DNA from: Hoylesella marshii DSM 16973 = JCM 13450
GTDB taxonomy: Bacteria > Bacteroidota > Bacteroidia > Bacteroidales > Bacteroidaceae
DNA: 64,000 nucleotides
Assembly (NCBI RefSeq): GCF_000146675.1
Contig: NZ_GL397214.1
Span: 2,371,163 to 2,435,162, forward strand
Reading direction: 5' to 3'
The translations under genes and the position numbers were made by a program. Of this stretch, positions 13,170 to 60,632 are shown piece by piece. The notes beneath the pieces are model-generated. The model saw nothing but the letters and a program-made list of their open reading frames with translations, ran no database searches and had not been told where the DNA came from. Every line of letters starts with the position of its first letter. Position 1 is the stretch's first letter.

Positions 13170-13252
13170 CAGAATTTTGCACACAAAATTGCTTCCCGAC
13201 AATCCGCTGACAGAATTTTGTACACGAAATTGCTTCCCGACAACCCGCGGAA
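13170..13252. repeat. 41-bp direct repeat with internal hairpin (two units)
   Basis: Two adjacent 41-bp units begin CAGAATTTTG at 13170 and 13211, differing at a few positions. Each contains AATTTTG-N4-(C)AAAATT, a stem-loop perfect in unit 1 and slightly altered in unit 2 (TTTTGTACACGAAA). The preceding 41 bp may hold a degraded unit (TGCTTCGACCGTTCTTA). It lies in the 283-bp gap after the second Fic gene. Confidence 0.8.
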
Positions 13253-13293
13253 CAAAAATCGTAAACAAAACAAGACCTCTACATTGAAAATGA

Positions 13294-13321
13294 GATACCC
13301 TCGGTGTCGTACTGAGGTATC
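13294..13321 (-). terminator. Possible terminator between fic and murI
   Basis: Imperfect inverted repeat GATACCCTC / GAGGTATC with a 10-base loop, between the convergent Fic and murI genes. On the minus strand it is followed by TCATTTTC, a weak T-run. It could serve either direction. Confidence 0.4.
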
Positions 13322-13357
13322 TTGAGGGTAAACATAAAGAAAGGGAATGGCTGGAGG

Positions 13358-14194
13358 TTATTCCAGACTGATATGCTCCACTTGCACGTCTTCATGAAGA
13401 AACATGCGGGCGGTTTCTTGGAAACGTTCGGGACTTTCGGTGGTGAGATACCGGCATGTGCCTCCTTGGGTGCATCGCGAAGCTATCTCGGGATGGCGGT
13501 GCAGATAGTCGTCGAGACTGCGGGCGACGTAGCAGCCTTGGGGAATGATATGCACGGAGGCGGGCAGATGTTTGCGTATCTTGGAGAGGAGCAGGGGATA
13601 GTGGGTGCAACCAAGTATCAGGCTGTCGATGTGCGGGTCTTTGCTCATCAGTTCGTCGAGGCGCTTTTTGACGAAGTAATCGGCACCCTTGCTATCGGCT
13701 TCATTGGCCTCTACAATGGCAGCCCAAAGGGGACATGCCTGCCCCGTGACGATGATGTCGGGATAGAGTTTGCCGATTTCCATCTCGTAACTCCTGCTCT
13801 TGATGGTGCCCGGTGTGGCCACAATGCCTACGTGTCGGGTAGTGGTGATGTCGCCGATGACCTCCGCTGTGGGACGAATTACGCCCAATACGCGTCGCGA
13901 AGGATAGGTGGTGGGTAAATCGTGCTGCTGAATGGTGCGCAATGCCTTGGCTGATGCCGTGTTGCAAGCTAAGATGACGAGACGGCAACCTTGTGCAAAG
14001 AGCTTCATGACGGCCTGTCGCGTAAACTCATAGACCACATCGAACGAGCGAGAACCATAGGGGGCACGGGCATTGTCGCCAATGTAAATGTAATCGTACA
14101 TGGGCAGTTGCTGCCTGATTTCATGCAGAATGGTGAGTCCGCCATAACCGGAATCGAATACACCGATGGCTCCTGCGCCGGATGAATGGGTCAT
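13358..14194 (-). CDS. murI: Glutamate racemase
   Basis: 278-residue enzyme converting L-glutamate to D-glutamate for peptidoglycan. The start at 14194 (MTHSSGAGAIGVFDSGYGG) overlaps the upstream ompH stop by 3 bp in an ATGA arrangement. Key elements are the acid/base aspartate and serine in GVFDSGYGGLT, IGDNARAPYG, the first catalytic cysteine in LACNTASA and the second in LGCTHYPLL. It is the last gene of the bamA-ompH cluster, linking outer-membrane assembly to cell-wall precursor supply as in many Bacteroidota. Confidence 0.95.
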   Translation of the reverse strand: MTHSSGAGAIGVFDSGYGGLTILHEIRQQLPMYDYIYIGDNARAPYGSRSFDVVYEFTRQAVMKLFAQGCRLVILACNTASAKALRTIQQHDLPTTYPSRRVLGVIRPTAEVIGDITTTRHVGIVATPGTIKSRSYEMEIGKLYPDIIVTGQACPLWAAIVEANEADSKGADYFVKKRLDELMSKDPHIDSLILGCTHYPLLLSKIRKHLPASVHIIPQGCYVARSLDDYLHRHPEIASRCTQGGTCRYLTTESPERFQETARMFLHEDVQVEHISLE

Positions 14195-14691
14195 TTCAAT
14201 GCTTCTCTGACGAGGTTGTTGATGTCTTCCGCAAAACTTTGGTCGATATAGGGGCATGCGTTGCTGTCGGTATTGATAATCAGCACGTAGCCTCGCTCTG
14301 CTGCAATGCGTTTCAACAGGGCATTGAGCTTGTCGCGTAAGGGTCGGTAAGCGTCTTGCTCGGCTTGGGAAAGGAGGCGCGCGGCCTCTTTTTTAAAGGC
14401 GACGTTCTTGTCCATCAATTCCTGCAACTCTGCCTGTCGCTTCTGCAAAATGGTGGAAACGAAAGTGCGTTGGCCGTCTAAGAAGGCCTCGTATTTGGCG
14501 TTAAACTCGTCTTCTGCCCGCTTTGTCTCGGCATCGTATTTTGCTTTCAGGGTTTCGAGGTTCTGCTGCACGGTGGCATATTCGGGCATGGAACGGAATG
14601 CGCCGTCGTAGCTGAAACAGGCAATTTTCGTCTGTGCGACAGCCAAGAGCGGCAGTGCAAGAAACAGAAGGGGAAGGATTGATTTTTTCAT
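14191..14691 (-). CDS. OmpH/Skp-family periplasmic chaperone (third copy)
   Basis: 166 residues. A signal peptide (MKKSILPLLFLALPLLAVAQT) is followed by the OmpH pattern: KIACFSYDGAFRSMPEY, then a long charged coiled coil (about residues 40-115: LETLKAKYDAETKRAEDEFNAK) and the closing strand GYVLIINTDSNACPYID. Skp chaperones hold unfolded outer-membrane proteins in the periplasm. It overlaps murI and is separated by 63 bp from the second copy. It differs from the other two copies, so functional specialisation is possible. Confidence 0.88.
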   Translation of the reverse strand: MKKSILPLLFLALPLLAVAQTKIACFSYDGAFRSMPEYATVQQNLETLKAKYDAETKRAEDEFNAKYEAFLDGQRTFVSTILQKRQAELQELMDKNVAFKKEAARLLSQAEQDAYRPLRDKLNALLKRIAAERGYVLIINTDSNACPYIDQSFAEDINNLVREALK

Positions 14692-14754
14692 ATCGTGTGG
14701 CGGTGTAATGAAAAAGGGCAGACCCTCGAGTCTGCCCTTATGGTTATCGTTTTG

Positions 14755-15255
14755 TTATTTCAGTTTCAGCAGCTCGGCCTTTACCTCAGCGGTAACGTCT
14801 TTGCTAAGGGTGTCGCTGATATAAGGTATTCCGCTGGCTTGGTCCATGATGTAAACGTAGCCTCCGGCTTTGCCTACATTCTTAATGGCTTTGACCAATT
14901 TCTCGGTAATGGGCTGCATTTTCTCTTGCGAAGCCTTGCTGAGTGCCTGCTGATTGTCCTGATAGGTCTGCTGAATCTTTTGATACATTTGCTGCAAAGC
15001 AGTCTCTGTTTCTTGCTGCTTGGTAGCATTCATCGTGCTCTTTGTTTTGTCGTATTCCTCCGATTTGCGCTGTAGTTCGTCCTGCATCAGCTTTAAATCG
15101 TTCTCATACTGCTTCTGTTGAGCATCTATATCGCCCTTTGCTTTGATGAATTCGGGCATTCCTTGCATAATGCTCTGTGCGTCGATATGTCCGAATTTCT
15201 GTGCAAATATTGACAGAGGAGCGAACAGCATCAACATCAAAATAAGTTTCTTCAT
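14755..15255 (-). CDS. OmpH/Skp-family periplasmic chaperone (second copy)
   Basis: 166 residues with a signal peptide (MKKLILMLMLFAPLSIFAQK). The start of the mature chain (FGHIDAQSIMQGMPEF) is the Skp/OmpH N-terminal pattern. A coiled coil rich in Gln, Lys and Glu covers about residues 38-115, and the C-terminal part GGYVYIMDQASGIPYISDTLSKDVT returns to the beta body. It has its own -7 box at 15340 and so may be expressed separately from the first copy and bamA. It is a chaperone candidate for outer-membrane proteins. Confidence 0.9.
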   Translation of the reverse strand: MKKLILMLMLFAPLSIFAQKFGHIDAQSIMQGMPEFIKAKGDIDAQQKQYENDLKLMQDELQRKSEEYDKTKSTMNATKQQETETALQQMYQKIQQTYQDNQQALSKASQEKMQPITEKLVKAIKNVGKAGGYVYIMDQASGIPYISDTLSKDVTAEVKAELLKLK

Positions 15256-15339
15256 TTCTATTCTCTTTTTAAATTAACTGTATTCTTTACGTTTTCGTGT
15301 CATTGCTTCCCGCTTTCTTACCTGCGGAAAGCGAGTTTG

Positions 15340-15347
15340 CAAATATA
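15340..15347 (-). promoter_or_regulatory. -7 promoter box before the second ompH gene
   Basis: Minus-strand TATATTTG matches TAnnTTTG and lies 85 bp upstream of the ATG at 15255, in the 98-bp gap between ompH copies one and two. It suggests an internal promoter in the bamA-ompH-murI cluster. Confidence 0.55.
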
Positions 15348-15353
15348 CGCATT

Positions 15354-15866
15354 TTAGTTGGAATAACCTAACTTTTGCAAGATTTCGTTGCTAATATCTA
15401 TCCTCGGCGATGCGAAGATGATGCCATTATCGCTGGCTCTGTCGAGCACGAGAGCATAGCCGCGCTGTTCCGAGATTTCTTTCACGGCGTTGTAAATCTC
15501 GTCTTGGATAGGGGAAATCAGACTTTCGCGCTTCTTAAAGAGTTCGCCCTCTGGTCCGAAATACTTCTTTTTCAGGTCGCTGGCCTCCTTTTCTTTCTTC
15601 ATAATGGCCTCCTGACGCGTCTTTTTCTGCTCTTGAGAGAGGAAGACGACTTCATTCTGGTAATTCTTATACAAGGCGCTTGCTTCGTTGTTGAGGGCTT
15701 CGACCTCTGCCTGCCACCTTTTCGACACTTGATTCAACTGCTCGTTGGCACGTTCATAGGCAGGGATATTCTTCAGAATATACTCCATGTCCATCAATGC
15801 GAACTTCTGTGCACTGGCCGTCAGCGATATGAGAGCTACGGCCATCATCATCAATCGTTTTTTCAT
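15354..15866 (-). CDS. OmpH/Skp-family periplasmic chaperone (first copy)
   Basis: 170 residues. A signal peptide (MKKRLMMMAVALISLTASAQK) is followed by FALMDMEYILKNIPAYERA, matching the start of Bacteroidota OmpH proteins that follow bamA. The helical hairpin covers about residues 38-110 (LNQVSKRWQAEVEALNNEA), and the closing body contains GYALVLDRASDNGIIFASP, the best match of the three copies to the standard OmpH ending. It begins 58 bp after bamA and is probably co-transcribed with it. Confidence 0.92.
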   Translation of the reverse strand: MKKRLMMMAVALISLTASAQKFALMDMEYILKNIPAYERANEQLNQVSKRWQAEVEALNNEASALYKNYQNEVVFLSQEQKKTRQEAIMKKEKEASDLKKKYFGPEGELFKKRESLISPIQDEIYNAVKEISEQRGYALVLDRASDNGIIFASPRIDISNEILQKLGYSN

Positions 15867-15924
15867 CGTTTCTGCTTTTAAGTGATTTTATCTGTAGATG
15901 AGTGAGTATTCTCCTCTTCCGAGA

Positions 15925-18543
15925 TTAGAATTCCTGTCCCAGATAGAAGTGGATATGCCCGCCGCCTTTGGTTCCAAACACTTTGTCGAATCCGTAAGCC
16001 CAGTCTATACCCATAAGTCCCACCATAGGAAGGAAGATACGTATACCCAAACCAGCACTGCGTTTCATGTCAAACGGGTTGAAATGCTTGGTATCGTTCC
16101 ACGCATTACCGGCCTCGGTAAATGCCAAACCGTAGATGGTTGTATTGCCGAGCATAAACGGATAGCGCAGTTCCAATGTGAAGCGGTCATAGGCATAGCC
16201 TGCATATCCATTGGGAGTGAGCGAACCGTTTTCATATCCTCGCAAGCCGATAATTTCTTCTGCATAGCCTGTAGAGTAGCCGCTCATGCCATCACCACCC
16301 ATGTAATAGGTCTCGAAAGGCGATTTCTTATATTTATTATAACTGCCTAAAAGACCCATTTCCACACGTGTCACGAGTACAAAGCACTTCTGTGCGCCCG
16401 AGAGTGCCGTGAAAGTCTTCGATTTGAACTTCCATTTATGGTATTCCACCCAGCGGTATTTCTCCTGCTGTTCTTGCAGATAGGTGGCCGATTGAGGGTT
16501 GTTAGCCAGATTTCTATAATCCTTTCTGTCCCATTTCGACCAAGGCGGAGTGAGCGTAACCGAAGCTGTAAACTCCGACCCGCGGCGGGGAAAGAGTTGG
16601 TTGTCTGTGGAAATGCGCGACAGAGAGATACCCACGTTCAAACTGTTGGAATTTCCTGTGGACAGCAAGAAGTATCTCCAATTCTTCAGCATATAACGGG
16701 TGTACGACAGCTGGAGCGACAATGTGAAGTAGTCATCAGGCCAACGAAGTCGCTTTCCCCATCCTATCGAGGCACCAAGCAGCTTCACATACTTATCGGG
16801 GTCATAGTAATTCTCATAATTGTTGTAGTAACTGTTGCCATAACCATACATATAGTTATAGTAGTTATTCATGTAGCCATTGTTATAATAGTTACTTGAA
16901 ACATCCGTCTGCTTGGAATAATACACGCTGAAACTAAACTGAATCGGGCGTTTCCCACCAAACCAATTGGTGGAATATGCAGCATTATACGACTGATAAT
17001 ACTGGGCATTGGTCTGTGCTCCCAAAGAGAGTGTCTCGCCATCACCCACCGGCATGATGCCGCGATGTTCCTTATTTTTGTTGAAAAGGTTTCTGATGGA
17101 GAAGTTAGTGAGCTTTAATCCGACACGTCCGATAAGTCCCGTCTGTCCCCAACCTAAGGAGAGTTCCACTTGGTCATTGGCTTTCTGTTGCAAATCCCAA
17201 TTGATGTCCACGGTTCCATCTTCGTAATTGGGTTTTACGTCGGGGGCTATTTTCTCTGGATCAAAGTGCCCCATAGAGGCCAACTCTCTGGCCGAACGCA
17301 TCAAAGCCTCTTTAGAAAACAGGTCACCGGGCTTTGTACGCAGTTCACGCCTTACCACATTCTCATAGAGTCGGTCGTTTCCATTGATTCTTACGTGATT
17401 GATGTGTGCCTGTTGTCCCTCGAATATGCGCATTTCCAAGTCGATGGAATCTCCTACAATGTTTACTTCCGTGGGTTGAAGGTTATAGAAGATATAGCCG
17501 TTATTCCAATAGTTATTGCCCACGGCATCGTCGTCTTCGGTCAAACGCTTGTTGAGCAACTTTTGGTTGTACACGTCTCCTTTCTTCATTCCTAAGACCG
17601 CCATGAGATAGTCGGTAGAGTAAACGGTATTGCCGACCCATGTGATGTTGCGAATATAATACTTCTGGCCTTCATCTATCTTCACATAGATATCTACGTG
17701 CTTCTTATCGTAATTGCTGACACTGTCTTTTACGATAACGGCATCTCGGTATCCATATTCATTGTACTTGTCTATGAGTTTCTGCTTGTCTTTCTTAAAG
17801 CGTTCAGGGGTATATTTTTTCGACTTCAAAAAGGTAGACAGCTTGCCGGCTTCGTGTGTCTTTGAGAACGCACCTTTTTTGAGTAAACCTCCTTTTATTT
17901 TAGAATCAGACAGGGCATGGTTGCCTTCGAGAATGATTTGATGCACTTTTATCTTCTCTTGCTTGTCCACATCCACATCCAGAATCACTTGCCCTTTATT
18001 CGTTAAATCATCGTGTTGACGAATGGTTATCTCTGCGTTCTTATAGCCCTTATCATCGAAATACTTCTTTGCAAGCTTCTTGGCGCGGTCTATCATGTTG
18101 GGCGTAATCTGCGACCCTTTGATGATACCGAGCTTTGTCTCCATGTCTTCACGTTCCGATTTCTTCAATCCCGTGTAGTTGATGGTAGACACCCTCGGCC
18201 TTGTCTTCAAGTGAATATTGAGATAGATGCGACTGCCCACGATGGAATCGGCTGTGATGGAGACCTCGGAAAACAAGCCATGACGCCAATATCGCTTCAC
18301 GGCATCGCTGATTTCGTTGCCCGGCACGCTGATTTCCTGCCCTATCGAAAGTCCTGAAATACCTGTCAGTATGTAGTCTTCATAACCTTCTATCCCCGTA
18401 ACGGTTATGCCGCCGATGGTGCAAGAACGGGGTGTTCCGGCGTAGGAGATGTCGGGGTTCACGATTTTATCTTGTGCCATGCCCTGCAAAGCGATGCCGG
18501 TGGTCACGAGATTCAGAATGAATATCTTCTTTATAAAATTCAT
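15925..18543 (-). CDS. bamA: Outer-membrane protein assembly factor BamA
   Basis: 872 residues. It is the central component of the BAM machine, which inserts beta-barrel proteins into the outer membrane. A signal peptide precedes five POTRA repeats (for example VTGIEGYEDYILTGISGLSIGQEI and VRINGNDRLYENVVRRELRTKPGDLF). The C-terminal Omp85 barrel includes the VRGY-type motif as IGLRGYENGSL, and the chain ends with HFYLGQEF, an aromatic terminal residue. A Tyr/Asn-rich insert of about 35 residues lies near residues 555-590. It is placed between uppS and ompH as usual in the phylum. Confidence 0.95.
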   Translation of the reverse strand: MNFIKKIFILNLVTTGIALQGMAQDKIVNPDISYAGTPRSCTIGGITVTGIEGYEDYILTGISGLSIGQEISVPGNEISDAVKRYWRHGLFSEVSITADSIVGSRIYLNIHLKTRPRVSTINYTGLKKSEREDMETKLGIIKGSQITPNMIDRAKKLAKKYFDDKGYKNAEITIRQHDDLTNKGQVILDVDVDKQEKIKVHQIILEGNHALSDSKIKGGLLKKGAFSKTHEAGKLSTFLKSKKYTPERFKKDKQKLIDKYNEYGYRDAVIVKDSVSNYDKKHVDIYVKIDEGQKYYIRNITWVGNTVYSTDYLMAVLGMKKGDVYNQKLLNKRLTEDDDAVGNNYWNNGYIFYNLQPTEVNIVGDSIDLEMRIFEGQQAHINHVRINGNDRLYENVVRRELRTKPGDLFSKEALMRSARELASMGHFDPEKIAPDVKPNYEDGTVDINWDLQQKANDQVELSLGWGQTGLIGRVGLKLTNFSIRNLFNKNKEHRGIMPVGDGETLSLGAQTNAQYYQSYNAAYSTNWFGGKRPIQFSFSVYYSKQTDVSSNYYNNGYMNNYYNYMYGYGNSYYNNYENYYDPDKYVKLLGASIGWGKRLRWPDDYFTLSLQLSYTRYMLKNWRYFLLSTGNSNSLNVGISLSRISTDNQLFPRRGSEFTASVTLTPPWSKWDRKDYRNLANNPQSATYLQEQQEKYRWVEYHKWKFKSKTFTALSGAQKCFVLVTRVEMGLLGSYNKYKKSPFETYYMGGDGMSGYSTGYAEEIIGLRGYENGSLTPNGYAGYAYDRFTLELRYPFMLGNTTIYGLAFTEAGNAWNDTKHFNPFDMKRSAGLGIRIFLPMVGLMGIDWAYGFDKVFGTKGGGHIHFYLGQEF

Positions 18544-18564
18544 ATATCTATAATATGTCTTGTC

Positions 18565-21424: not shown

Positions 21425-21847
21425 TGGGCGATTGATATTATTTTTGGCTGCAAATTTAATCAGAATTCTGCAAATAGCTCTGTTTTTGCACACTTTATTA
21501 TATAAAATAGGGTTTGTAAACGCATTTTTAACCCAAATCGGTCATGAGAGTCTGTCAGATTTTGTTTGATGGTTGTTCAGATTGTTTGCCGTCCGCTCGA
21601 AGGCGTAGCGGGCTACGTCAAGAGAGGACGGCAGGCAAGATGCCGACAAGCAAATAAAAGATGACAGGAAGCTATGTCATCCACATTGAAAGGATTGATA
21701 AGCAGTCTCATGACCAATTTTGGGTTTAAGTTCTGTTTACGCAAGTGGGGACAAGGGCTGCCGATAAGCGAATGAACCACACTGAAAATGCGTCGACGGA
21801 CAGGCAGACCGACGATTGGGAAAAGCACACAGAGGAGGGAACTTGCC
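21425..21847. other. Intergenic region with structured elements and promoter
   Basis: No protein-coding gene is supported in this stretch. It holds a minus-strand -7 box TAAATTTG (21451-21458) for the DUF6242 gene. It also contains two copies of the motif CTCATGACCNATTTGGGTTTAA (minus near 21529-21550, plus near 21707-21730). A nested hairpin with outer stem GCCGTCC/GGACGGC and inner stem GTAG/CTAC lies near 21589-21632, and a GATGACA/TGTCATC stem near 21660-21681. The nested hairpin could be part of a non-coding RNA; no known family was recognised. Confidence 0.45.
21451..21458 (-). promoter_or_regulatory. -7 promoter box for the DUF6242 gene
   Basis: Minus-strand TAAATTTG fits TAnnTTTG and lies 27 bp before the ATG at 21424. 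It probably also drives the downstream DUF6089-uppS-bamA genes. Confidence 0.55.
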
Positions 21848-21935
21848 GGAGCTATGCTTTAACAGCGTAAAAGGATAGCTCTAACCTCCTAAAAGCATAG
21901 CGTTTACACGCTCAAAGCACAGCTTTTGCAAAACA
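21848..21935. repeat. 22-bp tandem array (AAAGCATAGC family), four units
   Basis: Four consecutive 22-bp units start at 21848, 21870, 21892 and 21914. Units two to four begin AAAGGATAGC, AAAGCATAGC and AAAGCACAGC; the first is more diverged (GGAGCTATGCTTT). The same family with the same period occurs at 34878-34965 and, inverted, at 60270-60329. Outside the repeats the gap to 22064 is featureless. Confidence 0.75.
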
Positions 21936-26924: not shown

Positions 26925-27014
26925 CAAAAATAATTTCATTTCCTACGCATGAAATCACCCCCGAAGCGTTTCACCCCCTAAATGCCCGAGCGCAGAGCGG
27001 TCAGAATGTGAAAA

Positions 27015-27245
27015 CTGCCATCATCCACGGCGGATGGCAGAAAATAACTCAAAAACTGCCATCATCCACGGAAGATGGCAGAAAATAACCAAAAAACTGC
27101 CATCGTCCACGGAGGATGGCAGAAAATAACCAAAAAACTGCCATCGTCCACAGAGGATGGCAGAAAATAACCAAAAAACTGCCATCATCCACGGTGGATG
27201 GCAGAAAATAACCAAAAAACTGCCATCATCCACGGTGGATGGCAG
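27015..27245. repeat. 41-bp tandem array with palindromic units, six units
   Basis: Six units start at 27015, 27056, 27097, 27138, 27179 and 27220, an exact 41-bp period. Each is a 26-bp imperfect palindrome with invariant arms CTGCCATC / GATGGCAG, then a spacer AAAATAACCAAAAAA. Variation is confined to the centre (ATCCACGGCG, GTCCACAGAG and similar). It sits between divergent promoters of parC and the HTH gene. A period not divisible by three rules out a coding repeat. Confidence 0.92.
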
Positions 27246-27263
27246 AAAAAATCTTCAAAAACT

Positions 27264-34833: not shown

Positions 34834-34877
34834 CTGCGTAAGTTCTTATCATACAATGACATACAAAGTTTATCGAA

Positions 34878-34965
34878 AAAGCATAGCTCTTACCTTCTGA
34901 AAGCTGTCCTTTCATGCCTTAAAAGCTATCTTTTTATCTTTCCAAAGCATACCTTTTTCGCCATA
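34878..34965. repeat. 22-bp tandem array (AAAGCATAGC family), four units
   Basis: Units start at 34878, 34900, 34922 and 34944, beginning AAAGCATAGC, AAAGCTGTCC, AAAGCTATCT and AAAGCATACC. The period is exactly 22 bp. It belongs to the same family as the array at 21848. The rest of the gap to 35092 holds a CTCATGACAGATTTGAG motif (35031-35047) and no gene. Confidence 0.75.
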
Positions 34966-35092
34966 GGCACTGCGTCTTCGACAGAACAACAAACAATCAG
35001 AACGACCATCCAACAAAATCTGAATAGGCTCTCATGACAGATTTGAGATAAAAGTAATGAGACTTTCAGGTGGCAGATACGACAAATTTGAT

Positions 35093-40700: not shown

Positions 40701-41094
40701 CTCTATTGGTACAAGGCGCAATGTAAGCTCCGAGAAAGCCGTTTTGTAGGGTACATTGATACCATAATTATATGCGAGTTCGGGATAGAGAATATTTAAG
40801 CCGTAAGAGAAGAGGCGGCTGTGGAGTACAGCGGAACGATAAAAGTGACCCTCACTATTGGGAAAAAGACACCCCATTTCTCTAATTTCGCAGCACAGGA
40901 CTTAGGCTGATGCTTAAACCGAACTCACATATATTATAATGGTATGAGGTGCAACTTAGACTCTAAGAGAGCGCAAGATATGAGCCCAGCGCGTAGCACT
41001 GGATATAGGGCAATTCCACGGCACTGAAACGAAGTTCGCCGTGCGAAGCAAAGGCAAAATACGACATTGACGAACACCAGATGCCTGTTGCGCT
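40701..41094. other. Intergenic region without a supported gene
   Basis: Between the MITE-like element and repeat copy B I see no convincing coding sequence. Besides the half-element at 40772-40788 it holds CCGCTTT-type fragments and AT-rich sequence. A GCGTAGCACTGGATATAGGGCAATTCCACGG stretch near 41000 is weakly echoed near 44750. Confidence 0.4.
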
Positions 41095-41226
41095 GAGAAA
41101 GGTTGCCGACCTTTCCTTGTACAAACTGTATCTGTACACCATACAAACGCCATCTGTACAGGGTACGAATGCCGACTTATCAATCGTAACTTTACGTCCC
41201 TTAAACTCCAATCGGTCATAAGAGCC
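41095..41226 (+). repeat. Dispersed 22-bp-unit element, copy B
   Basis: The core (41095-41176) has GAGAAAGGTTGCCGACCTTTC (a near-perfect hairpin), the two 22-bp units with CTGTATCTGTACACC and GCCATCTGTACAGGG, and GAATGCCGACTTA. The right flank ATCAATCGTAACTTTACG...AATCGGTCATAAGAG also matches copy E in inverse orientation, so the full unit may extend to 41226. Confidence 0.8.
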
Positions 41227-44584: not shown

Positions 44585-44640
44585 ACGTTGTGTACCACCA
44601 ACATTTACCGTCTTATATGAACAGAAGCCGTCTGTGTCAA

Positions 44641-44720
44641 GAAAGGTTACCGACCTTGCCTTGTACAAACCGTATCTGTGCCACGTACAAACGCCATCTG
44701 TACAGGGAACGAATGCCGAC
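44641..44720 (+). repeat. Dispersed 22-bp-unit element, copy C
   Basis: GAAAGGTTACCGACCTTG, then the two 22-bp units with CCGTATCTGTGCCACG and CGCCATCTGTACAGGG, and GAACGAATGCCGACTA. Same orientation as copies A and B; the core is about 90% identical to copy B by eye. Confidence 0.82.
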
Positions 44721-44827
44721 TAAAAGCGAAAGGGATAAGCGAGTCAAACACCTGCCAATACCACGAAATGAAGTCGCCCCTGTCACCACAACATGAGACA
44801 TCGTGCACCTGATAAGGACATCATTCC

Positions 44828-44910
44828 CTACGCGAGTTCGGGATAAGAGGTCTCGTCTAATACCCCCGTCGGGGCTTACAGTCCGATAGCCTTATCCAGA
44901 ACTCGCGTAG
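44828..44910. repeat. MITE-like element, copy 2
   Basis: The ends CTACGCGAGTTCGGGATAAG and CTTATCCAGAACTCGCGTAG are inverse complements over 20 bp with one mismatch; the interior is about 43 bp. It is the best-preserved copy. CTA/TAG at the two outer ends may belong to the inverted repeat rather than to a target duplication. Confidence 0.85.
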
Positions 44911-44976
44911 TTAGATAATCAAGTCGATGAAACATGGTTTATCATCGTCTTTACGATAGGAAATACAAATTCCCAA

Positions 44977-45174
44977 ACGTGGATAACGACTTATCCAAAC
45001 GTTGGTAATGACTTATCCAAACGTGGAGAATAGATTATCCAGACGTGGATAACAAATTATCCAAACGTGGAGAACAGATTATCCAGACTTGGAGAACAAA
45101 TTCTCCAAACGTGGATAATGAGTTATACAGACGTGTATAATGAGTTATACAGACGTGGATAAGGGATTATAAGG
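44977..45174. repeat. 22-bp tandem array with palindromic units (about nine units)
   Basis: Consecutive 22-bp units start at 44977 and then every 22 bp. Typical unit ACGTGGATAACGACTTATCCAA; the core TTATCCAAACGTGGATAA is a palindrome across the unit boundary. Variants substitute GGAGAA or GTATAA for GGATAA, with matching changes on the partner arm in some units (TTCTCC, TTATAC). No start codon or open frame uses the array. Confidence 0.9.
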
Positions 45175-45250
45175 ATGTGATGGGAATTTAATATTCCTTA
45201 TATCTCGTGAGGTGAAATCATATTGTAAAGGCGGTTGCCCTCTAACTATC

Positions 45251-48316: not shown

Positions 48317-48400
48317 TTCGTTTTGCCGGCAGTCATTCTCTATGTTTTGCTCTCCCATGTCGGTTCTTTTATCCCGTTCTTTCCGATTTGCCGAGAAAGG

Positions 48401-48502
48401 GTCGTAAAGTTGCGATTAATAAGTCGGCATTCGTACCTTGTACAGATGGCGTTTGTACGTGGTACAGATACGGTTTGTACATAGAAAGGTCGGCAACCTT
48501 TC
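48401..48502 (-). repeat. Dispersed 22-bp-unit element, copy D
   Basis: Inverse orientation to A-C. In the plus strand it reads GCGATTAATAAGTCGGCATTCG, then TACCTTGTACAGATGGCGTTTG, TACGTGGTACAGATACGGTTTG and TACATAGAAAGGTCGGCAACCT: four 22-base segments, of which the middle two are clear tandem repeats. It lies between the mmdC terminator and panD. Confidence 0.82.
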
Positions 48503-48557
48503 AGGAAGCAAATCGTATATGTGGAAAATCATATATGCGTATCGGGCAGTAAGAAGT

Positions 48558-52452: not shown

Positions 52453-52649
52453 CTGCCGGTTCCAGCTATCTCGTACCCCGACTGAATATTTTGCCCAAAG
52501 GCTGCATCGTGTCCACAGGTAGCGCACATCACAATAGTTCAATCGTTTTTGATGCTCAAAAGTTCAGGATTGTAACTTCTACCCCCAATCATTCATGAGA
52601 CTGCTTTTCTACCATTTGATAGGGATGACATCGCTTCCCGTACAAGCAC

Positions 52650-52754
52650 TCATGACCGATTTGAGTTTCAGGGTCGTAAAGCTACGATTGATAAGTCGGC
52701 GTTCGTCCCCCACACAGATGGCGTTTGTACATAGAAAGATCGGCAACCTTTCTC
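52650..52754 (-). repeat. Dispersed 22-bp-unit element, copy E (one unit deleted)
   Basis: It begins (plus strand) with CTCATGACCGATTTGAGTTTCAGG and GTAAAGCTACGATTGATAAGTCGGCGTTCG, as in copies B and D. It then has only one of the two 22-bp units (ACAGATGGCGTTTGTAC) before ATAGAAAGATCGGCAACCTTTC. The missing piece is exactly 22 bp, flanked in copy D by GTTTGTAC direct repeats. The gap 52453-52918 contains no other gene that I can support. Confidence 0.8.
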
Positions 52755-52918
52755 GGCGCAATTGCATTTGCCGATATAACCAAGGCAAGCAATGAGCTAA
52801 CATCCTGCGCTCTTGCAGAGCTTATTCCTATATTATAAAAAAGAGGTGGGAACGGAGCTATTGTCTGATATATTGCGCATTGAAAAGCCGCTTTGTGCAG
52901 AATAGGAGCGGAGAGACA

Positions 52919-55180: not shown

Positions 55181-56650
55181 TCAATCGGCCTTGCGCACCG
55201 ATTGTCGTGCCAGATGGGTGAAGACGGCATCCATGTCCGTGCAGCCAAACTCGGCTTTCAGTGTTTCAGGCGTGCCCAATGCGCGAATCTTTCCATCGAC
55301 CATGATGGAGATGCGGTCGCAGTATTCGGCCTCGTCCATGTAGTGGGTCGTCACGAAGACTGTGATGCCGCGATGGGCAGCGTCGTAGATGAGTTGCCAA
55401 AACTGTTGCCGCGTGGCAGGGTCTACTCCGCCGGTGGGTTCGTCGAGAAACACGATACCCGGCTCATGGAAGATGCTCACCGAGAAGGCCAGCTTCTGTT
55501 TCCACCCCAACGGCAGCGATTTCACGATGGTATCGGCATGCTCTGTAAAGCGGAGCCGTTGCAGAAGGTCGGTCGTCTTGCGGGCTATCTCAGCATCTTT
55601 CATGCCATAGATGCCGGCGAAGAGGCGGATATTTTCCCTCACAGTAAGGTCTTCGTAGAGCGAGAAGCGTTGGCTCATGTAGCCGATGTGTTGCTTGATT
55701 TGCTCGTGTTGCGTGGCGATGTCGAAGCCCATCACCGTACCCCGTCCGCCGGTAGGTTGCGACAGGCCTGTGAGCATGTGCATGGCCGTGCTTTTGCCGG
55801 CGCCGTTGGCACCGAGAAAGCCGAATATTTCGCCCTTGCGCACGTTGAAGGTGATGTCGTCTACGGCACGGAATGTGCCGAACGCTTTTACGAGATGTTC
55901 GACGCGTATGACGTCGTCGGTCGATGCAGCATGCGTCGTATGCACGGGAGCGGGCGGGGTAAACACATGGGCGAAGGCGGCGAGCACTTCGTCAGGCGTG
56001 CCCGTTCCTTTCACCGAACCTCGGTCGAGGAAGGCCACGCGCTCGCATCGGCGAATCTCGTCGATATACGGTGTGGCGGCCACGATAGTGATACCGCGCT
56101 CTTTGAGCATGGCGAGCATGTCCCAAAACTCCTTGCGCGAGACGGGGTCGACGCCCGTGGTGGGTTCGTCGAACAGCAGGATATCGGGGCGATGAACGAG
56201 GGCGCACGAGAGTGCCAGCTTCTGTTTCATGCCGCCCGAGAGTGCTCCGGCCTTGCGTTTTCTGAACGGTTCTATCTGCGAGTAGATGGCGCGGATGCCG
56301 TCGTAGCCCTCCTCGACGGTGGTGCCGAAGAGGGTGGCAAAGAAGCAGAGATTTTCTTCCACGGTGAGGTCTTGATAGAGCGAGAAGCGGCCGGGCATAT
56401 AGCCGAGTCTGCGCCGCAGCGGTTTCATGTTGTTCACCACGTCGAGTCCGAAGAGCGATGCGCGCCCCGCGTCGGGCACGAGCAGGGTGGCGAGGATGCG
56501 GAAGAGTGTGGTCTTGCCCGCTCCGTCGGCACCGATGAGGCCGAACACCTCGCCCTTGTCCACGTGGAAGCTGACGTCGGCGAGCGCGGTTGTTGCCCCG
56601 TAATGCTTTGCGAGGCGGTCTGCTTGGATGATATGGTTCATTGTTTTCAT
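55181..56650 (-). CDS. Double ABC ATPase of the efflux system (YbhF-like)
   Basis: 489 residues with two ATP-binding cassettes. The first (about residues 1-215) has Walker A GADGAGKTTLFR, signature ALSGGMKQKLALS and Walker B ILLFDEPTTGVD. A linker (about 225-250) follows. The second (about 250-480) has GANGAGKSTAMH, the variant signature LPLGWKQKLAFS and IVFLDEPTGGVD. The variant in the second cassette is normal for YbhF-like proteins. It powers the two ABC-2 permeases downstream; the 41-bp repeat array separates it from hlyD. Confidence 0.92.
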   Translation of the reverse strand: MKTMNHIIQADRLAKHYGATTALADVSFHVDKGEVFGLIGADGAGKTTLFRILATLLVPDAGRASLFGLDVVNNMKPLRRRLGYMPGRFSLYQDLTVEENLCFFATLFGTTVEEGYDGIRAIYSQIEPFRKRKAGALSGGMKQKLALSCALVHRPDILLFDEPTTGVDPVSRKEFWDMLAMLKERGITIVAATPYIDEIRRCERVAFLDRGSVKGTGTPDEVLAAFAHVFTPPAPVHTTHAASTDDVIRVEHLVKAFGTFRAVDDITFNVRKGEIFGFLGANGAGKSTAMHMLTGLSQPTGGRGTVMGFDIATQHEQIKQHIGYMSQRFSLYEDLTVRENIRLFAGIYGMKDAEIARKTTDLLQRLRFTEHADTIVKSLPLGWKQKLAFSVSIFHEPGIVFLDEPTGGVDPATRQQFWQLIYDAAHRGITVFVTTHYMDEAEYCDRISIMVDGKIRALGTPETLKAEFGCTDMDAVFTHLARQSVRKAD

Positions 56651-56678
56651 GATTGTTGAAAGATGGGGGTCGCAAAAA

Positions 56679-56859
56679 GTGACTTTCTTAGGCTGCCGGA
56701 GTTCATTTACTCCGAGAAAGTGACTTTCTTAGGCTGCCGGAGCTCATTTACTCCGAGAAAGTGACTTTCTTGCGTTGCCGGAGTTCATTTACTCCGAGAA
56801 AGTGACTTTCTTGGGCTGCCGGAGTTCATTTACTCCGAGAAAGTGACTTTCTTGAGGTC
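56679..56859. repeat. 41-bp tandem array inside the efflux operon (four and a half units)
   Basis: Units start at 56679, 56720, 56761 and 56802 with a partial fifth at 56843. Unit (plus strand): GTGACTTTCTTAGGCTGCC followed by GGAGTTCATTTACTCC and GAGAAA. The last two arms form GGAGT/ACTCC, enclosed by CTTTCT/AGAAAG across the unit. The array lies in the 288-bp gap between the hlyD-like gene and the ATPase gene and is transcribed on the minus strand. The rest of the gap is featureless. Confidence 0.92.
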
Positions 56860-56938
56860 ATGACAGTTATTTTTTTGATGGCGTTGTCAATTTACACCGG
56901 TATCTCGAAGGGTCGGCACGTCCACCCGTCCCATTGTT

Positions 56939-57835
56939 TCAGAACTTCACCTTGCCGTACATGCCTATCTTAATGCCGCCGTCGTTTCTCACGGCTATCT
57001 TCACGGCATAGACGAGGTCGGCGCGTTCGTCGTCGGTGACGATGGTCTTGGGAGTAAACTCCGAACGGTCGGAAATCCATACGACGATGCCCGAATACGT
57101 CTTACCTGCATGGTGTCCGTAGTCGCTCGTCACGCGCACCCTTTGTCCTATTTTTACGCTTGAGAGCTGTTCGGACGTGATGTAGGCGCGGAGAAACATG
57201 CGGTCGGTGTCGGCCATCTTGAACAGCGGTTTGCCCACAACGGCAAACTCGCCCCGTTCGGCATACGTCTCCAGTACCGTACCGGCAATGGGTGCTCGTA
57301 CATGGCATTTCTGCAATTGGTCTATCACCTCGGCACGCTGTATGTCGGCTGCCGTCATCTGACTGTTCAGGCTCTGTGTGCTGTTGCCGATGGCCGATAT
57401 CTGCGCCTCCAATTGCCGGCGCAACACGCGCACAGCATTGTCGGCATCGTCGAGTTGTTTGCGGCTGGCGGCACCGTCGGCCACAAGTCCCGCAAAGCGT
57501 CGGCGCTCCATTTCGGCGTTACTGAGTTGCTCACGGAGTGTGGCTATCTGTTTTGAAAGGTCGGGACGCTGGTTGGCATACACGGCTCTCGTGGCTCCAA
57601 GCTGCCGTGCCTTGAGCATCAGCGGCACGGTGTCGATGAGGCCTACCTGCTCGGCTGCCTGCAATCGGCTGCCCTCCATCACGTCGAACCCGATGAGGCG
57701 GCCGCTCTGTTCGGCCGAGACGGTTACTTCCGTGGCCTCGAAAAGGCCGGTCGCGTCATAGTCTTTCTGCCTGTTGCCACATGCCGTGAGCAGTGCCAAG
57801 GCCATGAACGGGAGTAAAAGGATTGTTCGTTTCAT
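56939..57835 (-). CDS. HlyD-family periplasmic adaptor (lipoprotein)
   Basis: 298 residues. The lipoprotein signal (LALLTAC) is followed by the biotinyl-lipoyl start DATGLFEATEVTVSAEQSGRLIGFDVMEGSRL, a coiled coil of about residues 75-165 (KQIATLREQLSNAEMERRRFAGLVADGAASRKQLDD) and the returning lipoyl half CHVRAPIAGTVLETYAERGEFAVVGKPLFKM. The beta-barrel domain includes YITSEQLSSVKIGQRVRV. It bridges the inner-membrane exporter and the TolC-like channel, and is encoded between them. Confidence 0.93.
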   Translation of the reverse strand: MKRTILLLPFMALALLTACGNRQKDYDATGLFEATEVTVSAEQSGRLIGFDVMEGSRLQAAEQVGLIDTVPLMLKARQLGATRAVYANQRPDLSKQIATLREQLSNAEMERRRFAGLVADGAASRKQLDDADNAVRVLRRQLEAQISAIGNSTQSLNSQMTAADIQRAEVIDQLQKCHVRAPIAGTVLETYAERGEFAVVGKPLFKMADTDRMFLRAYITSEQLSSVKIGQRVRVTSDYGHHAGKTYSGIVVWISDRSEFTPKTIVTDDERADLVYAVKIAVRNDGGIKIGMYGKVKF

Positions 57836-57859
57836 ATCGCTTGTTTTTTATGTTTTGTC

Positions 57860-59137
57860 TTAGTTGCCAGCCTCGCCGACGGCAAATCGCAGGTCGTAAA
57901 GTGCCTTGAGCATCTCCATCTCGTGTGCCGACCTGCGGTTGCGGGCATCGTTCTCGCGTGTGAGTTCCTGTATCAGTTGGTTGACATCTATGATGCCATG
58001 GTCGAGTTTCGATTCCGCAGCTTTCCGCACAGCACCGCGCAGCCGTATGATTTCCTCGTCGTCGGCCATCAGTTGCCGATAGGTTTCCATCAGCTGTCGT
58101 TGTCTTACCTGTTCGATGCTGTTGTTGAAGAGGAACACTTCGCGACTGTTTTCTGCCATGCGCCGTTGCGATTCCAACTTCCGTTGCTCGTTTTTATGGG
58201 TGTATAGCGAGGCGATATTCCACGTCAGACGCGCACCGATAAGCCCGTTGAGTCGCCAGCGGTGGGTCATGATATCGTCGAACATGTTGTAGCTCGGATA
58301 GCCGTAATAGCCCTGAACGAACACAGAGAGGCGAGGCATGAGGTCGGCTTTCAACGCGCGTTCCGCCGCCTCTGTCCATTGGATGCGCCTGTCGATAAGT
58401 TGCAGCTCGGGACGCTCAACCGTTTGTGCAACCTCCGCTACCGGCGGCTTGCTCAGCATCTGCACTTCGTATCCGCAGAAGAGGCTCAACATCCGCAATG
58501 CGGCACGGCGCACACCCTTCAACTCCGTCTGTTGCTGCATCGCTTTCATGCGTTCAGCCTTCACCGCATCCACATCGCTCTGCGTAGCCACTCCGTTGCG
58601 GAGCATGGCAGACAGTTTCTGCTCGTTGGCGGCAAGCAATGTCAGCAAATCATCGGTGGCCTTCATGCGTTCGTCGGTTGCGAGAACAGAGAAAAACAAC
58701 TCATTTACGCGTCCGCGCACGGCATACATCGTTACATTCTCTTCTGCCGTCTGCACGTCTCCTAACCTGTTTTCCATCTGTTTCCGGTTGCGTATCCGTC
58801 CGCCGTCCCATATCGTTTGGCTCACGTCTATGCCTACTTTGTATTGGTCTTTCTTCAATCCTTCGGGCGCATATCCCATGCTTGTCATCATGCCACCCAA
58901 CGCATCGGGCAGTTGCGCCACTCTGTTTTGCCATGTGGCTTGTGCCAAGGCAGATACTTGCGGCAACCATCCCTTGTTGAGATTGGCCACCGTGTAGGCC
59001 GTAGTTTGTCGTATGAGGTCGTATTTCCTGATAAGAGGATAATTGCGTGCGGCCGCTTCCTGGCAATCCGACAAAGAGGTCTGACTCCATGCCGGTAGCA
59101 CAAGCGCCGATAGCAGAGCCATGAATAGTTTCTTCAT
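57860..59137 (-). CDS. TolC-family outer-membrane efflux channel
   Basis: 425 residues. A signal peptide (MKKLFMALLSALVLPAWSQ) is followed by the two TolC halves: LSDCQEAAARNYPLIRKYDL and NLNKGWLPQVSALAQATWQN, then KPPVAEVAQTVERPELQLIDRRI and ALKADLMPRLSVFVQGYYGYPSYN. Helical segments lie near residues 145-215 and 320-400. It forms the outer-membrane exit channel of the efflux system and is the first gene of the minus-strand operon, 24 bp before the hlyD gene. A -7 box TACCTTTG is at 59161-59168. Confidence 0.93.
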   Translation of the reverse strand: MKKLFMALLSALVLPAWSQTSLSDCQEAAARNYPLIRKYDLIRQTTAYTVANLNKGWLPQVSALAQATWQNRVAQLPDALGGMMTSMGYAPEGLKKDQYKVGIDVSQTIWDGGRIRNRKQMENRLGDVQTAEENVTMYAVRGRVNELFFSVLATDERMKATDDLLTLLAANEQKLSAMLRNGVATQSDVDAVKAERMKAMQQQTELKGVRRAALRMLSLFCGYEVQMLSKPPVAEVAQTVERPELQLIDRRIQWTEAAERALKADLMPRLSVFVQGYYGYPSYNMFDDIMTHRWRLNGLIGARLTWNIASLYTHKNEQRKLESQRRMAENSREVFLFNNSIEQVRQRQLMETYRQLMADDEEIIRLRGAVRKAAESKLDHGIIDVNQLIQELTRENDARNRRSAHEMEMLKALYDLRFAVGEAGN

Positions 59138-59160
59138 ATCTTATGCTTTGATTTCGGAAG

Positions 59161-59168
59161 CAAAGGTA
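59161..59168 (-). promoter_or_regulatory. -7 promoter box for the efflux operon
   Basis: Minus-strand TACCTTTG fits TAnnTTTG, 24 bp upstream of the tolC ATG. Confidence 0.6.
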
Positions 59169-59265
59169 GGACGTTTCGGGCAATCAACAGTTATCTGTAG
59201 AAAGGATAAAATGTTCTTTTCGTACAAAAAACCTTTGTCTCAGAAAGGGATAGCGAAATAATGCT

Positions 59266-59273
59266 TATCTTTG
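59266..59273 (+). promoter_or_regulatory. -7 promoter box for the AraC-family regulator
   Basis: TATCTTTG fits TAnnTTTG, 23 bp before the ATG at 59296. It is divergent from the efflux operon promoter 98 bp away, so the regulator probably controls both. Confidence 0.6.
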
Positions 59274-59295
59274 CCACATTATTATATGAAAGGCA

Positions 59296-60198
59296 ATGGA
59301 AAGGGAACAACTCTACAATCTGACATTCTCTGAAGCGAAGAGCATTATCGAAAAGGACGACAGAAAAACGCTGGCTCATACGTATGTTGCCGAAGGATTT
59401 GGCATTTCTATCGGTGTGTCGGATTTGTTCCGTCGCAGAATCAGCGAGAAGCCCATGCGCATTGAAGGCCTGCGATTGGTACTCGTCAAGAGCGGACAGG
59501 CACGTGTCATTATCAACCTTATCACATACGAAATCACGGCGGGCAGCCTCATTATGGTATCAGACGACAGTATCGTGCATCTGCAATCCTATTCCGACGA
59601 CATAGATATCATGGGGCTGGTGCTTGTAGACGAACTGTTGAATCTCTTTTTCCACGGTTCGCCGCCCGAGACATTTTGTCGGAAGATGAACGGCTTCGTA
59701 CTCCGACTTACACCCGATGAATGCGATATAATGGAACGGATGCTTCATCTCATTTGGTCTGTGGCCAGACAAAAAGGGGCGGGATGCGAGACCGTGGGCG
59801 ACCTGATGGCTGCAAGTATCCGCTTTTGCGATGAATTGAATATAGAGAAAGTGAAGGAGGAGCGACAGCACAAAAGTCGTAACCAGCAACTCTTCGACCG
59901 TTTTATTGCCCTCATCAATACCCATGTTGGCGAGCACCATCGCCTCGCATTCTATGCCAACGAACTCTGCCTGACACAACGCTATCTCAGCACTCTTATC
60001 AAACAAACAAGCGGCGTGACGGCAAAGGCATGGATAGAGCGTGCCCTCGTGATGCGCATCAAGGTGATGTTGCGCCACTCAGACATGCAGATAACGCAAA
60101 TATCCGATAGCCTTCATTTTCCTAATGTCAGTTTCTTTTGCAAGTTCTTCAAGCGTCTTACAGGCCTCACACCCACCGAATACCAACACGCACAATAG
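59296..60198 (+). CDS. AraC-family transcriptional regulator
   Basis: 300 residues. The N-terminal domain (about 1-150) is a cupin-like ligand domain (GLRLVLVKSGQARVIINLITYEI, TAGSLIMVSDDSIVHLQSYS). Residues about 195-300 form the AraC DNA-binding domain with two helix-turn-helices: ELCLTQRYLSTLIKQTSGVTAKAWIERALVMRIKVMLRHSDMQITQISDSLHFPNVSFFCKFFKRLTGLTPTEYQ split across two segments. It is divergent from the tolC operon and is the natural candidate for its regulator; no operator could be defined by eye. Confidence 0.92.
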   Translation: MEREQLYNLTFSEAKSIIEKDDRKTLAHTYVAEGFGISIGVSDLFRRRISEKPMRIEGLRLVLVKSGQARVIINLITYEITAGSLIMVSDDSIVHLQSYSDDIDIMGLVLVDELLNLFFHGSPPETFCRKMNGFVLRLTPDECDIMERMLHLIWSVARQKGAGCETVGDLMAASIRFCDELNIEKVKEERQHKSRNQQLFDRFIALINTHVGEHHRLAFYANELCLTQRYLSTLIKQTSGVTAKAWIERALVMRIKVMLRHSDMQITQISDSLHFPNVSFFCKFFKRLTGLTPTEYQHAQ

Positions 60199-60632
60199 TC
60201 TTTTCCTCCAGCGGATTCACTCCGTCTCTATATATATTTAACCCATTGGACATTAAGGAGTTATATGTCACCTCGTCATCTCTTAGCTTTCACATGCTCA
60301 GAGCTATGCTTTCGCAGTGTAAATGCTTCTATAAAATCAGAAAACAGGAAAAATGTAGCGATTGAGTTGTGAATCAAGTTCTTAGGCGGGAAATTAAGAA
60401 GTGATAAAAAGTCACGCTATACCACGAAAAGGCAACTTACAGCCACCGTTCAGTTGCCAATTCGTAACCTCTTTTGCGATGGCGGCAAAGAGAGGAAAGA
60501 CGAGGAAATGGTGGCACGATAAGGACATGGGCATGATATAGAAAGAGGGTAACCAATGGAAATTCTTCCTCTCCCGCTTCGATTTCCGCAATCCTCCGCG
60601 ATTTGCGTAGTGACGAATGACTCTGCATTGAA
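60199..60632. other. Intergenic region before the mobile element
   Basis: No supported gene. It contains an inverted set of two 22-bp units (60270-60291 and 60292-60313) of the AAAGCATAGC family plus a partial third. The remainder is AT-rich. The integrase promoter follows. Confidence 0.5.
60270..60329 (-). repeat. 22-bp tandem array (AAAGCATAGC family), inverted, two units and a partial
   Basis: Read on the minus strand: GAAAGCATAGCTCTGAGCAT and GAAAGCTAAGAGATGACGAG, each 22 bp with two more bases. The first is close to units at 34878 (AAAGCATAGCTCT). A partial third unit, GAAGCATTTACACTGC, precedes them. Confidence 0.65.

What the first reader, a model, noticed from the sequence alone, without database searches (positions are those of the whole stretch)
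13170..60329. Period-locked tandem arrays: 22 bp and 41 bp recur with unrelated unit sequences
Seen directly: 22-bp tandem units occur at 21848, 34878, 44977, 60270 and inside the five dispersed elements at 5566, 41095, 44641, 48401 and 52650. 41-bp units occur at 13170, 27015 and 56679. Families differ in sequence but keep exactly the same period, and the 41-bp units and the 44977 array contain inverted repeats. 22 and 41 bp are close to two and four helical turns, so units would face the same side of DNA. Inference: they may be made by a common amplification process or bound by a protein that needs helical phasing. I know of no described Bacteroidota system with these two fixed periods.
Basis: partly seen in the sequence, partly recalled or inferred. 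Interest (0 to 1): 0.72.

Follow-up and report, generated by a model that had tools for sequence, protein, structure and literature searches.

The report
Palindromic 22- and 41-bp repeat arrays
This Prevotella-like genome carries many short tandem repeats whose unit is mostly 22 or 41 letters long, as in some of its relatives, and the units hold small mirror-image motifs more often than chance; the fixed lengths likely come from a few ancestral arrays that gain and lose whole units, and what first set the two lengths is unknown.

Summary
In 864 kb of this genome (a third), 52 of 62 non-coding tandem arrays have period 22 or 41 (or 42, or near multiples); a held-out second sample gave the same peaks. 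The lock recurs in two further species of the genus (G690, G137); several other Bacteroidales samples peak at 22 only, two show no peak, and Porphyromonas gingivalis is reported with 41/23/22. The non-Bacteroidota control shows neither.
The 41- and 22-bp units hold inverted repeats more than shuffled units do; arrays of other periods do not. Most 41-bp families that look unrelated are linked by partial similarity (31 arrays, 6-12 lineages). One family sits at one site inside a dead IS5-type element in four genomes; in this genome its copies differ by whole units, and palindrome tips have been swapped while spacer and pitch stayed.
Helical phasing is not supported (21/42 expected; no helical repeat fits both). 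RNA-level selection and the genome's Y1 transposase also find no support. Best reading: a palindromic minisatellite class akin to P. gingivalis BrickBuilt/PgRS repeats, kept by descent and whole-unit recombination. A hairpin-reading length ruler is not excluded.

The parts
13166..13251 (.). 41-bp array, 2 units, palindrome AATTTTG-CACA-CAAAATT
27011..27249 (+). 41-bp array, 5.8 units with six palindromes (CTGCCATC...GATGGCAG); lies between divergent genes; one of seven related loci in the genome
56676..56854 (.). 41-bp array, 4.4 units, two palindromes per unit (AGAAAG-TGA-CTTTCT and CGGAGT-TCATTT-ACTCCG); between convergent genes
44973..45179 (.). 22-bp array, 9 units, palindrome TTATCC-aaacgt-GGATAA; lies between two IS/MITE-type inverted-repeat elements
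21848..21935 (.). 22-bp array of the AAAGC-nnn-GCTTT family, 4 diverged units
34875..34960 (.). 22-bp array of the same AAAGC family, 4 diverged units
60262..60335 (.). 22-bp array of the same AAAGC family, about 3 diverged units (weakest of the three)
5552..5651 (+). dispersed element with internal 22-bp repeats (family with at least about 40 places in the genome)
41078..41202 (+). dispersed element with internal 22-bp repeats
44622..44721 (+). dispersed element with internal 22-bp repeats
48397..48511 (-). dispersed element with internal 22-bp repeats
52646..52761 (-). dispersed element with internal 22-bp repeats (weakest copy)
5128..5210 (.). MITE-like element, terminal inverted repeats TACACGAGTTCGGGATAAG / CTTATCCCGAATTCGCGTA, no array inside
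44828..44910 (.). MITE-like element of the same type, left of the 22-bp array at 44973

Best explanation
The 22-bp and 41-bp arrays are minisatellites enriched in palindromic units, and their fixed periods likely come from a few ancestral arrays that gain and lose copies in whole units and are passed on by descent, by exchange between arrays and by riding in insertion sequences, rather than from helical phasing. SHOWN: units hold short inverted repeats more than shuffled units do; palindrome plus spacer add up to 22 or 41 bp. SHOWN: 31 sampled 41-bp arrays link into 6 to 12 groups by sequence, depending on the cut. SHOWN: one 41-bp family lies at one identical site in four copies of a dead IS5-type element (one copy truncated on the left), holding 3, 4, 6 and 8 palindromes; the array regions differ by 42, 82 and 82 bp (one unit of the shortest is 40 bp), while the comparable parts of the IS body are 97-99% identical. 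SHOWN: between those copies the inner 9 nt of the palindrome can differ at every position while spacer and pitch stay. INFERRED: unequal recombination or slippage between units is the copy-number process, and it keeps the period because whole units are added or lost. INFERRED: the palindrome is kept at the DNA level (foldback on single strands and arm-to-arm repair, or exchange between arrays), and the tip swaps come from such exchange. NOT EXPLAINED: why the founding lengths were 22 and 41, and why the same lengths are reported in P. gingivalis.
For: Period lock. Palindromes versus shuffled units: 41-class n=18, mean stem 5.50 vs 3.71, Fisher 7.6e-7 (7 of 18 singly at P<=0.05); 22-class n=16, 4.88 vs 3.34, 1.9e-5 (5 of 16); relatives' 22/23/44-bp n=29, 1.4e-8 (12 of 29); relatives' other periods n=38, P 0.64 (2 of 38). 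Held-out 41-class n=13, 5.7e-5; 22-class n=19 including six 66-bp rows, 0.002. Linkage: 44 of 465 pairs of 41-bp units score >=12 with 0.9 expected, components 15, 10, 3, 1, 1, 1; 12 components at >=14. IS copies; array-free relatives; the same array at the same junction in G690, G223 and G759 (3 of 19 fetched loci; 6 clearly array-free). Other species: G690 41-units match own units, 14 of 341 pairs >=12 vs 1.6 expected; of the best two, one keeps spacer and palindrome (score 25), the other keeps the spacer with a changed palindrome (23). The 27011 family: five of seven copies share leader and tail flanks. No RNA-type wobble bias (GT 25, AC 23, P 0.48).
Against: Descent does not cover everything: 22-bp arrays remain 13 components, nine of them singletons, and three 41-bp arrays stay unlinked even at the looser cut. 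Groups that remain separate still share the same two periods. Most arrays are not inside recognised MITEs (inward-facing end pairs at 1 of 31 and 1 of 29 against 18 of 2050 non-ORF control positions; any end motif within 500 bp at 13 of 31 and 12 of 29 against 611 of 2050; only four end motifs and 500 bp were tried), so the carrier of most is unknown. Within arrays, compensated stem changes are few (3 of 902 cells), so changed-but-paired stems are seen mainly between arrays. In the IS family 24 of 38 units have a perfect tip and the rest do not; the shuffle test of tip pairing is weak (P 0.04, 9 tips, one a chance match), and several units in G690's copy are imperfect too. The 3-nt centre is the commonest loop (11 of 18, 7 of 16), but the control arrays give 24 of 38 by the same method, so loop length is not shown to be special. 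In G759 the 22-bp units are not palindromic (Fisher 0.97, n=12). No strains of this species were available to see copy-number change directly.
Confidence: 0.5

Rival explanations
1. A sequence-independent length ruler: an enzyme that recognises the palindrome as a hairpin cuts or copies at a fixed distance, and so makes 22- or 41-bp tandem units out of whatever spacer is present.
For: Two dominant period classes in G000 and again in G690 and G137, and 22 as the commonest period in Prevotellaceae loci. Spacers of the same length but different sequence flank the same palindrome edge (L247:7293 versus the IS family). Palindrome tips are swapped with pitch kept.
Against: No candidate enzyme found; the one tested, the Y1 transposase, goes with 66-bp arrays. 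Hairpins with unrelated stems show no 22 or 41 spacing genome-wide. Much of the 41-bp class is linked by similarity. No array was seen to arise from unique local sequence.
Confidence: 0.25
2. Helically phased binding sites for a DNA-binding protein.
For: Units hold inverted repeats; pitches are near two and four turns.
Against: 21 and 42 would be favoured but are rare; none of three helical repeats fits both 22 and 41; by arithmetic a nine-unit 22-bp array drifts 0.76 turn at 10.5 bp/turn; palindrome sequences differ between arrays, so one sequence-specific protein is unlikely to read them all.
Confidence: 0.07
3. The arrays are transcribed and selected as strings of RNA hairpins.
For: Hairpin-forming units; stems vary less than spacers (0.055 vs 0.083) and loops vary most (0.109).
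Against: No strand-specific G-U preference (25 vs 23; per-array test P 0.48); no Rfam match in five loci holding arrays or in the window (a tRNA only); no clear orientation to genes.
Confidence: 0.08
4. They are REP elements spread by a Y1 (IS200/IS605 or RAYT-type) transposase.
For: Palindromic, extragenic, dispersed; the genome has one Y1 gene with a 66-bp two-hairpin array about 0.4-0.5 kb downstream.
Against: In 21 fetched Y1 loci (23 genes, some cut by contig ends) arrays within 700 bp have periods 17, 48, 66-72, 88 and 92-94, never 22 or 41.
Confidence: 0.07

Closest known systems
BrickBuilt and 464/PgRS elements of Porphyromonas gingivalis (PMC4596501; section 7 part 1 and passages seen)
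   Same: Same order; tandem direct repeats of 23 and 41 nt (22 also reported for W83); IS5-type ends GAGACC..TGCA, like those of the IS here (GAGACCTCTGCAA); repeats inside an IS-derived element; predicted stem-loops for BrickBuilt.
   Different: Unit sequences could not be compared (P. gingivalis units not seen). Here most arrays have no recognised IS/MITE ends, dozens of 41-bp and 22-bp arrays coexist, palindromes are tested statistically, and an array is found inside a transposase gene.
REP / BIME arrays with RAYT transposases (PMC3733652, passages seen)
   Same: Short extragenic palindromes, some in arrays.
   Different: No Y1 gene examined is linked to 22- or 41-bp arrays; the 66-bp class here fits REP-Y1 better.
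Helically phased binding arrays (plasmid iterons, F plasmid sopC; recalled, no call)
   Same: Tandem units of about 22 or 43 bp with inverted repeats.
   Different: Those are one site and one protein; here many sites with different palindromes.
Prokaryote satellites survey (PMC6749651, passages seen)
   Same: Tandem DNA families, usually species specific.
   Different: The word starts Bacteroid and Prevotella do not occur in its main text; no 22/41 lock in the passages seen.

Membership tests
BrickBuilt / PgRS-type minisatellite-bearing MITE | tandem direct repeats of 23, 41 (or 22) nt without spacers between units | tested here: met
BrickBuilt / PgRS-type minisatellite-bearing MITE | array enclosed by leader and tail with IS-type terminal inverted repeats | tested here: inconclusive
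   Met for IS5-type copies and in part for the 27011 family (5 of 7 copies share both flanks); not seen for most arrays (paired ends 1 of 31 and 1 of 29, which looked for only four end motifs within 500 bp)
BrickBuilt / PgRS-type minisatellite-bearing MITE | unit sequence homologous to the P. gingivalis units | not tested
REP-RAYT (REPtron) | repeats flank a Y1 tyrosine transposase gene | tested here: not met
   0 of 23 Y1 genes in 21 fetched loci have a 22- or 41-bp array within 700 bp; one search listed more Y1 matches that were not fetched
CRISPR array | conserved repeats separated by unique spacers | tested here: not met
   spacers are repeated within each array; cas genes not searched
Helically phased protein-binding array | period an integral number of helical turns | tested here: not met
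Structured RNA family | strand-specific G-U wobble in variable stems | tested here: not met
   Rfam none in five array loci

The most novel reading that the evidence does not exclude
Bacteroidales possess a hairpin-reading DNA process with two fixed lengths, 22 and 41 bp, that builds tandem palindromic arrays from any spacer and can replace the hairpin tip as a block; P. gingivalis 41/23/22 repeats and these Prevotella arrays are products of the same machine.
Probability: 0.22. Interest if true: 0.85.

Novelty: new variant of a known kind. Interest (0 to 1): 0.6.

Why it matters
Period-locked minisatellites reported in P. gingivalis appear here as a wider class with a shared architecture (palindrome plus spacer to a fixed total). 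The array-bearing dead IS looks like an intermediate between an ordinary IS and a minisatellite-bearing MITE, with array-free relatives and copy-number steps visible. The tip swaps at constant pitch give a concrete, testable puzzle about how bacterial DNA keeps a length while changing a palindrome.

Tried and rejected
Rejected or negative. Hairpins with unrelated stems do not show 22- or 41-bp spacing genome-wide; only similar-stem pairs do. An outer-stem motif TTGC-N9-GCAA shared by several arrays is only mildly enriched in the sample (51 at N9, 20-44 at other gaps). Wobble test for RNA selection negative. Enclosure of arrays by four MITE end motifs not general. Y1 transposase as maker not supported. 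The idea that the IS-borne spacer derives from the transposase gene was considered; the resemblance is too weak to claim. Gene orientation: 41-class 6 divergent, 3 codirectional, 2 convergent, 5 overlapping a predicted ORF, 2 unknown of 18; no clear bias. The impression that 3-nt centres are special is not borne out: control arrays show them as often. I first took 66-bp arrays for coding repeats; those without hairpins (such as L230) may be, while L243:8050, L244, L246 and L311 hold hairpins. One search used a pattern that missed most units and was redone.

Limits. Array counts are from samples: 864 kb of 2.56 Mb of this genome. The scan is ungapped with score >=18 and misses diverged or gapped arrays. 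Pieces of one locus (L095, L229, L235) count as two arrays. 'Non-coding' means outside stop-to-stop frames of 450 bp or more. Searches scored only part of their candidates.

Literature: (search listings) showed no paper on 22/41-bp arrays in Prevotella; two ids tried for the P. gingivalis genome papers are not held. PMC5771137 and PMC10969869: passages only.
Full report
WHAT WAS CLAIMED AND CHECKED. The finding lists tandem arrays of 22 and 41 bp at a dozen places. Every place was confirmed against shuffles of the same bases, with best periods of 22 (44 at 34875) and 41. The window is positions 2371163-2435162 of contig 1 of a 2.56-Mb genome; its mmdA-type protein is 92% identical to that of an uncultured Prevotella.

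IS THE PERIOD LOCK REAL? An ungapped self-match scan over periods 10-130 found, in the first set plus the window (464 kb), 52 segments: 15 at 41 and 13 at 22, against 8 segments and none at 22 or 41 after local shuffling. The held-out set gave 37 segments: 12 at 41, 11 at 22. Restricted to non-coding sequence and period >=15, 62 of the 89 remain: 22 (21), 41 (24), 44 (3), 42 (2), 81 and 124 (1 each), 66 (4), and one each at 15, 17, 18, 21, 23 and 110. Scaling the 31 sampled 41-class arrays (coding filter off) to the genome suggests roughly 90 (extrapolation).

HOW WIDE IS IT? Same scan, non-coding, period >=15. Prevotellaceae loci (1.45 Mb): 57 arrays, 20 at 22, next 5 at 16, none at 41. Stretches from relatives G003, G004, G008, G009, G010 and G016: 36 arrays, broad, with 2 at 41 and 1 at 22. 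Other-family Bacteroidales L162-L172: 7 arrays, none at 22 or 41, one at 23. Phocaeicola and Parabacteroides records (200 kb): 2 arrays, both 22; non-Bacteroidota records (200 kb): 5 arrays, none at 22 or 41. Prevotella sp. oral taxon 299 F0039 (191 kb, no coding filter): 4 of 4 at 22. G690 (200 kb): 34 arrays, with 22 (9), 23 (7), 41 (5), 42 (3), 82 (3), 44 (2), and five others. G137 (80 kb): 11 arrays, with 41 (4), 44 (2), and one each at 22, 82, 84, 18 and 65. G759 (200 kb): 31 arrays, with 22 (10), 66 (5), 16 (4), 24 (4), 44 (2), six others, none at 41. So 22 is found in several families of the order and 41 is a class of some species. P. gingivalis W83 is reported to have 41-, 23- and 22-nt tandem direct repeats (PMC4596501).

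WHAT A UNIT IS. Many units show a short inverted repeat plus a spacer. Against shuffled versions of each unit, stems are longer in own 41-class (n=18, Fisher 7.6e-7), own 22-class (n=16, 1.9e-5) and relatives' 22/23/44-bp units (n=29, 1.4e-8), but not in relatives' arrays of other periods (n=38, 0.64); singly, 7 of 18, 5 of 16, 12 of 29 and 2 of 38 reach P 0.05. Held-out: 41-class 5.7e-5 (n=13); 22-class 0.002 (n=19, including six 66-bp rows). G690 6e-8 (n=29); G137 1.3e-4 (n=9). F0039 and gut Bacteroidales together 0.03 (n=6). G759 shows no palindromes (0.97, n=12). A 3-nt centre is commonest (11 of 18, 7 of 16) but equally so in the control (24 of 38), so the loop length is not special.

ARE THE FAMILIES UNRELATED? 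Mostly not. By best ungapped circular segment, 44 of 465 pairs of 41-bp consensus units score >=12 where 0.9 is expected, leaving components of 15, 10, 3, 1, 1, 1; a stricter cut (>=14) leaves 12. The 29 22-class units leave 13 components at >=11. G690's eleven 41-class units also link to them (14 of 341 pairs >=12, 1.6 expected).

A FAMILY CAUGHT IN THE ACT. Five of the sampled arrays form one family by shared spacer or palindrome-edge sequence but have different palindromes. Four G000 loci, one truncated on the left, carry this array inside an IS5-type transposase gene (Pfam DDE_Tnp_1 in the downstream piece; relatives named IS5 family transposase) with ends GAGACCTCTGCAA, close to those of P. 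gingivalis BrickBuilt and ISPg1. Array-free relatives with an open transposase frame exist; one in F0039 is 95-97% identical in DNA, although a 5.3-kb stretch of the window finds only about 68% identity in that record, so the IS has probably moved between species. At the array site F0039 holds 52 bp of coding sequence. The four G000 copies share both junctions; the parts of their bodies that could be compared (98 to 742 bp) are 97-99% identical; the array region is 144, 186, 268 or 350 bp with 3, 4, 6 or 8 palindromes, one unit being 40 bp. In six arrays of the family the inner 9 nt of the palindrome is most often TCAACATGA, AACGGCGTT or CCGGCTGGG, while the spacer and the 41-bp pitch stay; 24 of 38 units have a fully paired tip. 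The G000 copies also lack part of the upstream reading frame present in F0039 (left parts of 421 against 642 bp), so they are dead. A G000 fragment keeps the left IS end next to the array after an internal deletion, with its right end lost: close to the architecture of a minisatellite-bearing MITE. A genus search (22 of 398 genomes match the transposase piece, some distantly) gave 19 loci: three further genomes (G690, G223, G759) hold the same array at the same junction with 7, 4 and 4 palindromes, some imperfect; six are clearly array-free; three more read through without an array but with a diverged left side; seven could not be judged. Of 28 loci from the order-wide search, none shows a 41-bp array. 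The array-bearing element is thus most likely one dead, shared lineage whose tips changed after it formed.

WHAT IT IS NOT. Helical phasing predicts 21 and 42, and none of three helical repeats fits both 22 and 41. RNA-level selection predicts one-sided G-U changes; they are balanced, 25 against 23. The Y1 transposase genes examined are flanked by other periods. Hairpins with unrelated stems do not keep the pitch. Most arrays are not inside the four MITE end types tried.

HOW IT MOST LIKELY WORKS. Whole-unit recombination or slippage changes copy number and homogenises units, which keeps a period once it exists; IS and MITE movement and exchange between arrays spread units; palindromes are kept or re-made at the DNA level. 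The first two rest on the steps above, with the agent inferred; the last is inferred. Why 22 and 41 remains open, and a hairpin-reading ruler is the strongest rival.

COMPARISON AND VERDICT. The nearest described things are BrickBuilt and PgRS of P. gingivalis. By period and by IS ends the IS-borne family is of that kind; most arrays fail, or could not be shown to meet, the MITE feature. I call it a new variant of a known kind, interest 0.6.

Noticed in passing
G000 C1:1594063-1594518 (L311:8063-8518) and L311:8923-9287: The genome's only Y1-type transposase match (IS200/IS605 model just over cut-off, RAYT model below) has a 66-bp array with hairpins about 0.4-0.5 kb downstream; similar 66-bp arrays with changed but still paired stems lie at L243:8050, L244:10081 and L246:6177. 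Looks like a REP-type system.
   Followed up: partly
L320, L321, L323, L326, L327, L331 (Y1 loci of relatives): Y1 transposase genes in several Bacteroidales have tandem arrays of other periods within 700 bp: 48, 66-72, 88, 92-94.
   Followed up: no
NC_022111.1: A 1.77-Mb replicon of Prevotella sp. oral taxon 299 F0039 is filed as a plasmid in PLSDB; its length equals contig 1 of genome G267.
   Followed up: no
L095:401-856 and L229:10905-11237: Two different 41-bp arrays sit side by side, 12 bp apart, at two places of the genome.
   Followed up: no
window 21530-21730 and 34970-35050: Two of the AAAGC-type 22-bp arrays lie next to a dispersed element with ends like AAACCCAAATCGGTCATGAGAG (41 matches in the genome, 40 of 119 candidates scored; inverted pair).
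   Followed up: partly
G759 (L361-L370): This relative has ten 22-bp arrays, most of one shared non-palindromic unit type (TGCATTTAGCACCAAAACGC-like), a 22-bp class of another make.
   Followed up: no
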